NCBI GenBank assembly: GCA_024279275.1
Contig: JAJRRS010000005.1
Coordinates: forward strand, 1 to 47,507
Length of the DNA: 47,507 nt
Reading direction: 5' to 3'
Source: Planctomycetota bacterium
Lineage (GTDB): Bacteria; Planctomycetota; Phycisphaerae; Phycisphaerales; Phycisphaeraceae
Part shown: piece by piece, positions 5,347-13,187 of the stretch
How the letters are laid out: each line of letters begins with the position of its first letter
Position numbering within the stretch: position 1 is the stretch's first letter
Translations under genes and position numbers: made by a program
Notes under the pieces: generated by a model
The model's input: the letters and a program-made list of their open reading frames with translations, nothing else
What the model was told of the DNA's origin: nothing
Databases searched by the model: none

Positions 5347-6201
5347 ATGTTGTGTAAGTGGATTAAACGCGGTGTGATCGCGACTGTGGGCGTGACCCTG
5401 GTTGGCGGTCTGTTGTTTGGTGGCGATCTGATGAGCTACGTCAAGAGTTCGGCCAATGCGGTGCGTGGGCATGTCGAGAACAGTGTGCCGATCGAGTTTG
5501 AGCTGACCCGTGCGCGGGATTTGCTGGACGAAATCATCCCGGAGATGCACGCCAATGTGAGGCGGATCGCGACCGAGGAGGTCGAGTTGGCATCGCTCAA
5601 GGCTGACATCCAGGCGAGCAACGAGAAGCTCACCCAGGAGCGTGCCCGGGTGGCGAAGCTGCGTGATGTGGTCGGTGTGGAACTGGCCAGCTACCGGGTC
5701 GGCGGGCGCAAATACACCCGCGAGCAGGTGGTGGATGATCTGTCTCGAAGGTTCGACCGTGTGAGAGAGGCGGAGGACATTCTTGCAGGCAAGGAGCGGT
5801 TGCTGGTTCAACGTGAGGCGACCCTGGCGGCGGCGGAGCGGATGCTTGCGAAGACCCGTAGCCAGAAGTCGCTGTTGAAGGACAAGATCGAATCGCTGGC
5901 GAGCCAGCACCGGCTGGTGCAGGCGGCGGCGGTGGGTTCAAACATGGAGATGGACAACAGCAAGCTGGCACAGACCGAGAAGCTGATCAGCGAGATCAAG
6001 AAGCGTCTGGATGTCGCGGAGCGTGTGTTGGCGCGTGAGTCGGATTTTGTTCAGCCGATCGAGGTGAGTGTGGTGGATGAAGACGACTTATTGGCGCAGG
6101 TTGATGAGTATCTGTACGGGCCTGTGGAGTTGACGGTGGAGGTTGTCCCGGATGATTCTGCGGAGGATGGGCGGCTGGCGGATGCGAAGTCGCTTAATTA
6201 A
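5347..6201 (+). CDS. membrane-anchored coiled-coil protein (284 aa)
   Basis: The family is not identified with certainty. A hydrophobic N-terminal helix (about residues 9-28, VIATVGVTLVGGLLFGG) anchors a protein that is otherwise almost entirely helical and charged. Residues 50-110 and 130-235 are predicted by eye as coiled coil, with heptad-like patterns such as LASLKADIQASNEKLTQERA. The C-terminal 45 residues are acidic. The overall style recalls PspA/IM30-like proteins, but it has a real TM segment and no PspA signature that I can see. AAGGAG at 5334-5339 is a strong ribosome site 7 bases before the ATG. It opens the kinase/FHA/sigma gene set on the plus strand and is followed by a strong hairpin. 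Confidence 0.8.
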   Translation: MLCKWIKRGVIATVGVTLVGGLLFGGDLMSYVKSSANAVRGHVENSVPIEFELTRARDLLDEIIPEMHANVRRIATEEVELASLKADIQASNEKLTQERARVAKLRDVVGVELASYRVGGRKYTREQVVDDLSRRFDRVREAEDILAGKERLLVQREATLAAAERMLAKTRSQKSLLKDKIESLASQHRLVQAAAVGSNMEMDNSKLAQTEKLISEIKKRLDVAERVLARESDFVQPIEVSVVDEDDLLAQVDEYLYGPVELTVEVVPDDSAEDGRLADAKSLN

Positions 6202-6221
6202 TTGCTGATGCGGTCCTCGTT

Positions 6222-6251
6222 CCCGTCGGGTGCGGCGTAGTACCCGACGGG
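6222..6251 (+). terminator. 10-bp stem hairpin after the coiled-coil gene
   Basis: CCCGTCGGGT at 6222-6231 pairs perfectly with ACCCGACGGG at 6242-6251. It lies 20 bases after the stop codon. There is no U run, so it may attenuate or protect mRNA rather than terminate. It is followed by two copies of CTTACCGGGGG (6261 and 6275). Confidence 0.45.
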
Positions 6252-6372
6252 CCGGGGGCACTTACCGGGGGGGGCTTACCGGGGGACTTAATAAATCATT
6301 GCCTTGCGGTCAGCGAAAGACTTGGCTGCAAGGGTTAAATCGGGTTGGGCGGCTAACTTGGGAGCACGAACG

Positions 6373-10902: not shown

Positions 10903-12203
10903 TGGCTGCGGGTATTTCAATAGTTGGGTTGTTTGTTTTGGGCATCCTTGCCCTGCTGGCGATCCTGTTGATCGTGTTTATTGTTAAGGCTTTAAGTAAG
11001 AATCCGGGCGTGGGCCGGGTGTTAGTCGGTGGGTTTGCCGTGGTGGTGATCTGGGTTGTGGGTACGTTTTTGTTGTATCAGAGACAGACTGTGGATTCCA
11101 GAGAGAGTTTGAATTCCATAATGTCCTATGACGATAGGGTAGGCGTCTCCGGTGGGGGGGCTTCTATCCAACCACAAGCGCCCATGAGCAGCGGCATCAC
11201 GATCGCGGGCACGCCGTGGACGAATGCGGTTGAAGAGTTTCAGGATTTCGAGGCGGATGTTTACCCGTCCATCGAGGCGGCAGCCGAAGCACTGGGCCGA
11301 CGGGTGGGCACACGGCTGATGGAAACGTCAAGCACGGGCAATACAGCTAAGCGATCTATCTACGTCTGGCTTGATGAAGATTTAGGTTCCATCTCGCGCG
11401 ACGTATTGGAAGCGGTGGCGACGGGTATCCGGCAGAAGCTCGACAACCCGGCCTATGTGTCGGTCGAACGCCCGGCATCGCCTGACGCGGTCGCGGTCGG
11501 GCTGGCTGTCCAGGAGTTCCAATTCGAGAGTCACAAACGCTGGCGGAAACAAACCGAGTCGCGCTCGGGTGCGATTGCGCTCCGTGTTAAGACCCCTGAT
11601 GGGCCGTTCTCTGTCTCGACGCGCTTCAACGAAGCTCCCTGGGTAGAAGACCGCAACGCTTTCGCAGCAAAATACTCGAAAGGCGATTGGCTGGTCGGCT
11701 ACTCTGATGGCACACACACCACGCAAGAACAAGCGAAGCGGGACGCGATCCTCGCCGCCACCGAGACACTGCTCCCTCTGGCGAAGGCCCGGATCAGCCA
11801 ACTGCCCGCTTCCGACCAGCATCACTTCACCAAGCAGATGCAGGAAGACCCCGACTGGCTCCGCGATCGGATCGCCGACGAGTTGGTTGCAGGGAACATG
11901 TTGGCGGACCGGTTTGCCCAGCGTTTTGATCGGCCCTACGGCACGGTCTGGCGCGAGGCGGTGCTGATCGATGCTTCACCCAAACGTATCGAGGAGATCG
12001 CAAGGTCGCTGGTGCAGGGCGTGGATTCCCGTGTGGCGAGTAAACGGGGGGCCTTGTTATCGTACATCGCGATGTTCGGGTTGGTGCTGGGGACGTATGT
12101 ATTTCTGAATATGGCGACGAAGGGTTATTATGCCGGGGCGCTGCGTTTTGTGGCGGTCGTCGGGGTGGTGGTGGTGGTGTTTATTGTGAAGTTTTTGATT
12201 TGA
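10899..12203 (+). CDS. four-TM membrane protein with large loop domain (434 aa)
   Basis: Not recognised. Two hydrophobic helices near the N-terminus (about 6-30 and 40-57) and two at the C-terminus (about 388-405 and 410-433) flank a soluble domain of about 330 residues. That domain contains mixed alpha/beta sequence such as SKGDWLVGYSDGTHTTQEQA. A run of seven G (near 11154) encodes part of a Gly-rich linker. The start overlaps the kinase stop by four bases, so it is translationally coupled to the kinase and probably acts with it at the membrane. Orientation of the loop domain cannot be decided from the sequence. Confidence 0.85.
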   Translation: MMAAGISIVGLFVLGILALLAILLIVFIVKALSKNPGVGRVLVGGFAVVVIWVVGTFLLYQRQTVDSRESLNSIMSYDDRVGVSGGGASIQPQAPMSSGITIAGTPWTNAVEEFQDFEADVYPSIEAAAEALGRRVGTRLMETSSTGNTAKRSIYVWLDEDLGSISRDVLEAVATGIRQKLDNPAYVSVERPASPDAVAVGLAVQEFQFESHKRWRKQTESRSGAIALRVKTPDGPFSVSTRFNEAPWVEDRNAFAAKYSKGDWLVGYSDGTHTTQEQAKRDAILAATETLLPLAKARISQLPASDQHHFTKQMQEDPDWLRDRIADELVAGNMLADRFAQRFDRPYGTVWREAVLIDASPKRIEEIARSLVQGVDSRVASKRGALLSYIAMFGLVLGTYVFLNMATKGYYAGALRFVAVVGVVVVVFIVKFLI

Positions 12204-12230
12204 TGGGGTTCTCTGGATCGATGCATCAGT

Positions 12231-13187
12231 ATGAACAAACTATCCGAGGCTGAACGCTACCTGCTGGACGCGGTGCGTCGTGGGGATGAGCAGGGTTGGC
12301 CGCAACTGGTGGATCGTTACCAGGGGCGGTTGTTGGCGTTTGCGCGTAGCCGGGTGCGTGATGCGGGTGAGGCGGAGGACCTGGTGCAGGAGGCGTTCAT
12401 CGGGCTGCTGCGCGGGCTTGAGAAGTTTCGCGGGGATTCGAGTTTGGAGACGTATTTATTTTCGATCCTGCGTCGGCGGATTATTGATGCGTATCGGGGC
12501 AAGGCAAAAAGTCTGTGTTTGTTGCGGGATACGTTGCGGGCGGGGGACGATGATTCGGATGCGGGGCCTGAGTCTCGTTTGCCGGCCCCGGACCTGACGG
12601 CGAGCACTTATGCCCGCAATGCCGAACACCGTGGCGAGATGCACAGTGCGCTTGCGGGTGCGATCGATGAGCTGGTGTGTGGGTATAAGGATGCGTTGAA
12701 CTTTCGTGAGTTGCAGATCATTGAGCTGGTATTTTATGCGCAACTAAAAAACGCGGAGGTGGCGGAGGCGGTGGGCGTGGATGCTGGGCATGTGGGGACG
12801 GTCAAGCATCGCAGCCTGGCACGCATCCGAAAACACCTGCTGGATCAAGTTGCCCCCGGTAGCCCCGCCTCCGGTAGCTCCGCCGCTGGTACTTCCCCGG
12901 ATCCCCCTGATTCCCCGGACCTGCCGGATATCCCGGATGCTTTGCTCACCGCGGTCTGGGAAGACCATCGGCCAAGCTGCCCCAAGCGAAGCACGATCGG
13001 CGGGTATCACCTGGGCACGCTGGACCCGGGCTGGCAGGGTTATGTTGATTTTCATCTGAATCGGCTTGGTTGTCGGTTTTGCCTGGCGAACCTTGATGAC
13101 CTCAAGGAAAGCGAAGACCGGGCACATTTGGATCGGCTTCGCCAGCGGGTGCTGCAATCGACGGTGGGGTTTTTGAAGAAGGGCTGA
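12231..13187 (+). CDS. ECF-like sigma-70 family factor with C-terminal Cys/His domain (318 aa)
   Basis: RNA polymerase sigma factor. Region 2 (about residues 10-85) reads WPQLVDRYQGRLLAFARSR, then EAEDLVQEAFIGLLRGLEKF and the promoter-melting segment ETYLFSILRRRIIDAYRG. Region 4 (about 130-205) has FRELQIIELVFYAQL and the helix-turn-helix NAEVAEAVGVDAGHVGTVKHRSL. A Pro/Ser-rich linker follows. The last 85 residues contain RPSCPKRSTIGGYHLGTLD and FHLNRLGCRFC, a Cys/His arrangement reminiscent of anti-sigma zinc fingers, making this far longer than a standard ECF factor (about 190). It starts 27 bases after the kinase-coupled membrane gene and is followed by a terminator, so it probably closes that operon. 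Kinase control of this factor is an inference. Confidence 0.92.
   Translation: MNKLSEAERYLLDAVRRGDEQGWPQLVDRYQGRLLAFARSRVRDAGEAEDLVQEAFIGLLRGLEKFRGDSSLETYLFSILRRRIIDAYRGKAKSLCLLRDTLRAGDDDSDAGPESRLPAPDLTASTYARNAEHRGEMHSALAGAIDELVCGYKDALNFRELQIIELVFYAQLKNAEVAEAVGVDAGHVGTVKHRSLARIRKHLLDQVAPGSPASGSSAAGTSPDPPDSPDLPDIPDALLTAVWEDHRPSCPKRSTIGGYHLGTLDPGWQGYVDFHLNRLGCRFCLANLDDLKESEDRAHLDRLRQRVLQSTVGFLKKG

What the first reader, a model, noticed from the sequence alone, without database searches (positions are those of the whole stretch)
5347..13187. Kinase/FHA/coiled-coil/sigma operon as a candidate membrane-to-transcription signalling system
Six consecutive plus-strand genes code for a membrane-anchored coiled coil, a small coupled ORF, a TPR-like plus FHA protein, a Ser/Thr kinase with a polytopic TM2-type region, a four-TM protein coupled by ATGA overlap to the kinase, and an ECF-like sigma factor; a terminator follows. 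FHA domains bind phosphothreonine and kinases are known to act on partners, so a chain from membrane signal through kinase and FHA to sigma is a testable model. The combination is not one I recognise as a named system.
Basis: partly seen in the sequence, partly recalled or inferred. Interest (0 to 1): 0.65.

Follow-up and report, generated by a model that had tools for sequence, protein, structure and literature searches.

The report
Planctomycete kinase-to-sigma-factor membrane signalling operon
Five neighbouring genes, found together in many bacteria of the phylum Planctomycetota, look like an uncharacterised switch that passes a signal from the cell membrane through a protein kinase to a specialised transcription factor that turns on its own operon.

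Summary
A (coiled coil), B (TPR plus FHA-like), C (Ser/Thr kinase with TM2 and many TM helices), D (four TM) and E (ECF sigma) stay in that order in 12 other Phycisphaerae genomes with a C ortholog, where contigs reach. In 40 loci across the phylum chosen only for A, B is present in 33, a kinase in 36 and a sigma in 27, in two gene orders. Three results refine the model. (1) All 13 operons carry one ECF-type promoter (window: TGCCAT-N16-CGACTATC, 5250-5279) 44-85 nt before A; in leave-one-out tests it is the top-scoring position of the locus in 8 of 8 lineages. This implies autoregulation. (2) Sigma E ends in a domain with four invariant Cys/His residues. It resembles zinc-binding anti-sigma fingers and is a separate gene elsewhere, so it is probably a built-in anti-sigma. 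(3) The FHA-like domain has lost its phosphothreonine-binding residues in this clade, and sigma region 2.2 keeps its acidic pair. Simple FHA reading and EcfP-style activation are therefore both unlikely. Kinase-linked ECF sigmas are a known kind in Planctomycetes; this is a new variant. All mechanism steps are inferred.

The parts
5250..5279 (+). Predicted ECF-type promoter: -35 TGCCAT (5250-5255), 16-nt spacer, -10 CGACTATC (5272-5279)
   Evidence: Found once upstream of A in all 13 orthologous operons; background 0.069 per 200 bp; top-scoring position of the locus in 8/8 leave-one-out tests; only match in the window
5347..6201 (+). Gene A: N-terminal TM helix plus about 230-aa coiled coil
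   Evidence: Orthologs 44-88% identical; found in 80 of 392 phylum genomes
6373..6639 (+). Small genus-specific ORF, stop overlapping the start of B
   Evidence: Conserved in 6 genus members with GTGA/TTGA overlap
6636..8264 (+). Gene B: TPR-like repeats plus degenerate FHA-like region (about 7653-8195)
   Evidence: TPR hits; 23/33 homologs of the FHA-like region hit Pfam FHA; pThr-binding residues absent in this clade
8317..10902 (+). Gene C: Hanks-type Ser/Thr kinase (about 8362-9084) with polytopic C-terminal half and TM2 domain (about 10036-10197)
   Evidence: Pfam; HRDLKP, GDYG (GDYS in G029) and APE conserved in 13/13; 9-11 hydrophobic segments
10899..12203 (+). Gene D: four-TM protein with about 300-aa middle domain, predicted extracytoplasmic
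   Evidence: Hydropathy and positive-inside pattern in orthologs; conserved in place
12231..13187 (+). Gene E: ECF sigma factor, acidic sigma2.2 residues kept
   Evidence: Pfam/NCBIfam; alignment A3
12945..13178 (+). C-terminal zinc-finger-like domain of E (Ect): C250, H275, C281, C284
   Evidence: Invariant C, H, C, C in 28 sequences; profile match to zf-HC2/ZAS P=1.3e-5; separate gene or fused to sigma, matched in 96/392 genomes
13209..13227 (+). Terminator-like hairpin followed by T run
   Evidence: Pattern scan; not above chance by itself

Best explanation
The operon is one autoregulated signalling module. D, whose middle domain is predicted outside the cytoplasm, and A, a membrane-anchored coiled coil, sense or relay a state of the envelope to the polytopic kinase C. 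B is a TPR/FHA-like scaffold that docks kinase, substrate or sigma. ECF sigma E is held back by its own fused zinc-finger, anti-sigma-like C-terminal domain. When C is activated, phosphorylation of B and/or of E (linker or C-terminal domain) releases that brake, and E transcribes its own operon plus a very small regulon that includes a DUF4126-like membrane protein. Shown computationally: gene set, order, linkage, shared promoter, zinc-ligand pattern, intact kinase motifs, lost FHA residues, kept sigma2.2 acids. Inferred: topology, autoinhibition, phosphorylation targets, signal.
For: Order conserved in 12 other genomes with changing flanks. Of 40 A-centred phylum loci, B in 33, kinase in 36, sigma in 27 and Ect in 20, on the same strand in two arrangements. 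Co-occurrence across 392 genomes: A with Ect 64 both, 12 and 20 single (p=4.9e-43, not corrected for phylogeny); all 55 genomes with strong B have Ect. ECF-type promoter in 13/13, plus L092, and before the DUF4126 gene in 4/4 genus members that have it. Ect is a separate neighbouring gene in several lineages and sometimes follows a canonical zf-HC2 finger; it is fused to sigma in the window clade and in family f38. Profile match to ZAS-like fingers, score 29.8 against at most 13.1 in 30 shuffles.
Against: No experiment. Ect has H-x5-C-x2-C rather than the usual H-x3-C-x2-C, and Pfam does not recognise it in the window protein. The AlphaFold model of E is unusable (mean pLDDT 49.9), so docking on sigma could not be tested. 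In some f32 genomes Ect is not next to the module (L224, L225). Family f38 has sigma-Ect without a detected A. The promoter pattern was not found upstream of A outside Phycisphaerae.
Confidence: 0.5

Rival explanations
1. Direct phospho-activation as in EcfP/PknT and EcfK/PknS: kinase C phosphorylates E in sigma2.2 or the sigma2-sigma4 linker and supplies the charge needed to bind RNA polymerase.
For: Kinase and sigma lie in one operon; six ECF groups, several from Planctomycetes, are proposed to be kinase-regulated (PMC8999054); Ser125 of the linker is invariant in 11 orthologs.
Against: The sigma2.2 acidic pair is kept (E-A-E-D-L-V-Q-E in the window, no Ser/Thr in it) and in almost all module sigmas, whereas EcfP-type sigmas lack these charges. 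It gives no role to the C-terminal domain.
Confidence: 0.2
2. Ect is a zinc/thiol redox switch of the RsrA kind acting on sigma by itself; the kinase, FHA-like and membrane proteins form a parallel or modulating branch.
For: Four invariant Cys/His with ZAS-like spacing; known ZAS anti-sigmas lose zinc on oxidation and some are also kinase-regulated (SigH-RshA with PknB; PMC8999054).
Against: Does not explain the persistent linkage with kinase, B and A.
Confidence: 0.15
3. A conserved but not linear gene neighbourhood: A, B, C and D build an envelope structure or assembly machine whose expression is merely driven by E.
For: A and D are membrane proteins of unknown role; the predicted regulon is nearly limited to the operon itself.
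Against: The kinase domain is strongly conserved with all catalytic motifs, and an ECF sigma with a regulatory extension implies signal input.
Confidence: 0.12

Closest known systems
Kinase-linked ECF sigma factors (ECF43 EcfP/PknT and EcfK/PknS; planctomycete groups ECF59, ECF61, ECF62, ECF217)
   Same: ECF sigma gene in an operon with a membrane Hanks-type kinase, no classical membrane anti-sigma gene
   Different: Sigma2.2 acids kept; fused zinc-finger-like domain; conserved A, B and D partners. Group membership could not be tested here
ECF sigmas with C-terminal regulatory extensions (ECF41 SnoaL, ECF238 CorE cysteine-rich domain, ECF52 SCO4117 with ZAS plus TM)
   Same: Regulatory domain fused behind sigma4; ECF52 also carries a ZAS-like finger
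   Different: No TM in E; the domain has H-x5-C-x2-C and is a separate gene in sister lineages; kinase in the same operon
ZAS anti-sigma factors (RsrA, RshA)
   Same: C...H...C-x2-C ligand order with similar spacing (RsrA spacing from memory), profile similarity to zf-HC2, gene next to an ECF sigma in many planctomycetes
   Different: Two extra residues between His and Cys; fused to the sigma in this clade
PknB-type kinases with FHA partners
   Same: Hanks-type kinase domain close to PknB models; FHA-like partner
   Different: No PASTA repeats, TM2 plus polytopic region instead; FHA-like partner lacks pThr-binding residues

Membership tests
ECF sigma factor | sigma2 and sigma4 only | tested here: met
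   Sigma70_r2 and r4 hits, TIGR02937 above cut-off
ECF43/EcfP-type phospho-activated sigma | kinase gene in the same operon | tested here: met
   Gene C, order conserved
ECF43/EcfP-type phospho-activated sigma | acidic sigma2.2 motif replaced, with a Thr | tested here: not met
   EAEDLVQE in window, -ED- kept in nearly all module sigmas; definition from PMC13147305 and PMC8999054
Planctomycete ECF59/ECF61/ECF62/ECF217 | match to the group model | not testable with these tools
   No ECF group models at hand; classification paper not held
ZAS / zf-HC2 anti-sigma finger | profile similarity and four Cys/His ligands | tested here: met
   hhalign P=1.3e-5, score 29.8 vs max 13.1 shuffled; invariant C,H,C,C
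ZAS / zf-HC2 anti-sigma finger | H-x3-C-x2-C spacing | tested here: not met
   H-x5-C-x2-C in all 28 sequences
ZAS / zf-HC2 anti-sigma finger | binds and inhibits its sigma | not testable with these tools
   Structure model too poor
FHA domain | homology to the FHA family | tested here: met
   23 of 33 homologs hit PF00498, best 2.8e-10; window member itself does not
FHA domain as pThr reader | Gly-Arg and Ser-Arg-x-His | tested here: not met
   Window has G365-P366 and S382-V-P-V; absent in the Phycisphaerae clade
Hanks-type Ser/Thr kinase | catalytic motifs HRD, D-x-G, APE | tested here: met
   HRDLKP, GDYG, YMAPE in 13/13 (GDYS in G029)
PASTA kinase PknB | PASTA repeats / NF033483 cut-off | tested here: not met
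   200 bits against cut-off 450, kinase part only
PspA/IM30 (gene A) | PF04012 match | tested here: inconclusive
   3 of 43 members, best 6.4e-7, among many coiled-coil families

The most novel reading that the evidence does not exclude
A phylum-wide envelope-to-transcription pathway of Planctomycetota in which a Hanks kinase, working through a degenerate FHA scaffold and a membrane coiled coil, relieves an anti-sigma zinc finger that is either a separate protein or built into the sigma factor: a hybrid of kinase-controlled and ZAS-controlled ECF regulation not yet described.
Probability: 0.35. Interest if true: 0.75.

Novelty: new variant of a known kind. Interest (0 to 1): 0.6.

Why it matters
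Planctomycetes carry many kinase-linked ECF sigma factors, but how they work is largely unknown. This report gives a defined five-protein module, a predicted promoter, one candidate distant target gene, a candidate zinc switch and explicit residues to mutate. If right, it shows kinase control and anti-sigma control merged in one polypeptide, with a natural series from separate to fused partners.

Tried and rejected
SecE and LolE-like genes as regulon members: matches in G003 only, not conserved in orthologs. Pattern with a 13-nt instead of 14-nt gap: no matches, a slip that served as a control. AlphaFold of E (pLDDT 49.9) and D (60.4) from shallow alignments: too poor; fold search with D gave no match at E<=0.001. 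PDB profile searches with A, D and Ect: no credible relative. PspA kinship of A: inconclusive. F (13252-13542) and the lipid kinase gene (13630) as module members: rejected, they follow E only in some genus members.

Full report
Observation. The window is contig C134 of a 3.76-Mb genome in 200 contigs; its closest named relatives are Phycisphaeraceae MAGs. The plus-strand genes stand as described. C holds a protein kinase domain (2.8e-48) and a TM2 domain (5.1e-14); E is a sigma-70 ECF protein; B has weak TPR matches and no Pfam FHA match; A and D match nothing convincing. C and D overlap by ATGA. The small ORF before B is real in the genus: all six members keep it with the stop overlapping the GTG/TTG start of B; the likely start is ATG 6373.

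Conservation of order. Among 60 relatives, 12 hold a C ortholog, and each keeps A, B, C, D, E in order as far as its contig reaches, while flanking genes change. Exceptions: D was not detected in G025, contigs of G001 and G003 end early, and G002 has about 1.9 kb between D and E. Gaps between genes are mostly below 100 nt except A-B, and D-E in G029 and G002. Genes after E (F, lipid kinase) are shared only within part of the genus, so they are not part of the module.

Phylum-wide module. A profile of A matches 80 of 392 Planctomycetota genomes. In 40 regions fetched only because of A, profile searches found B in 33, the kinase in 36, sigma in 27, the sigma C-terminal domain (Ect) in 20 and D in 13, on the same strand. 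Two arrangements occur: A-B-C-D-E(-Ect) and B-(D)-C-E-Ect-A. Across 392 genomes A and Ect co-occur (64 both, 12 and 20 single), and all 55 genomes with a strong B have Ect. The p-values ignore shared ancestry.

Promoter. The 200 bp before A hardly align beyond the genus, yet all 13 hold CGWCYAYC exactly once, 44-85 nt before the start codon (background 0.069 per 200 bp), with a [TCG]GNMAN element exactly 16 nt upstream. Locus L092 from another family of the class shares it. With a weight matrix built without the tested lineage, the site is the best of all 24,000-36,000 positions of the locus in 8 of 8 lineages. CGWC-type -10 elements are typical of ECF sigmas (own knowledge). Strict patterns give about two or three matches per genome, against about one or fewer for the reversed control. 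Besides the operon, the site lies at the same place before a DUF4126-like membrane protein gene in all four genus members that have it, but not in other genera. So the module is probably autoregulated with a small regulon. That E itself uses this promoter is inference.

Sigma and its C-terminal domain. E keeps the acidic sigma2.2 residues (EAEDLVQE); so do almost all module sigmas. ECF43 sigmas such as EcfP lack them and are activated by phosphorylation there (PMC13147305; PMC8999054). The last 80 residues of E carry an invariant W and invariant C250, H275, C281 and C284. The same domain is a separate gene near sigma in several lineages, sometimes behind a canonical zf-HC2 finger, and an AIM24-family gene may lie between. 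It is also fused to sigma in family f38. Profile comparison with zf-HC2 fingers from related genomes gave P=1.3e-5 and score 29.8 against at most 13.1 for 30 column shuffles. The spacing is H-x5-C-x2-C, not H-x3-C-x2-C. I read it as a diverged ZAS-like anti-sigma domain built into E.

FHA-like protein. Homologs across the phylum hit Pfam FHA (23 of 33), and some, such as L128, keep Gly-Arg and Ser-Arg-x-His. In the window and its Phycisphaerae relatives these are replaced (Gly-Pro; Ser-Val-Pro-Val in the window). Phosphothreonine binding in the usual way is therefore unlikely in this clade; a scaffold role is more likely.

Kinase and membrane proteins. All catalytic motifs of C are conserved, and its kinase domain is far more conserved than D. 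D has four hydrophobic segments; the loop between the first two is positively charged in all 11 orthologs, which places the 300-aa middle domain outside by the positive-inside rule. The orientation of A is unclear.

Mechanism and verdict. The most likely reading is an envelope-responsive, autoregulated kinase-to-sigma module with a built-in anti-sigma domain. Linkage and promoter are well supported; phosphorylation targets, inhibition by Ect and the signal are inference. In Rhodopirellula baltica an ECF sigma and a nearby-numbered kinase (RB138, RB140) rise together under stress, and an FHA protein RB1789 has the number next to ECF sigma RB1790 (PMC2754498). Whether either belongs to this module was not tested.

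Known kinds. Kinase-linked planctomycete ECF groups (ECF59, 61, 62, 217) are listed in PMC8999054. The group of E could not be assigned, and the classification papers are not held, so part of this gene context may have been noted there. Hence new variant of a known kind.

Noticed in passing
window 6552-6571: Perfect palindrome CCCCCACCGGAAGGTGGGGG inside the small ORF, absent from the genus relatives; looks like a small inserted repeat; only one copy in the window.
   Followed up: partly
L153 / L155 (G000:C140:12338-13146): DUF4126-like multi-TM protein with a zinc-ribbon-like CxxC pair, preceded by the same ECF-type promoter in four genus members.
   Followed up: yes
L105:2891-3751, L106:15236-16015: AIM24-family gene between sigma and the separate Ect gene in Pirellulales-like genomes.
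   Followed up: partly
L220-L222 (family f38): Sigma fused to Ect without a detectable A gene; L220 also has FHA-like and kinase genes.
   Followed up: partly
L054/L045 between D and E: About 1.9 kb between D and E in genome G002, content not examined.
   Followed up: no
window 3099-5121: Genes resembling phosphate-uptake ABC components and an ArsR-type regulator on the minus strand diverge from the operon; the same neighbours occur in G004 but not in the other fetched loci.
   Followed up: no
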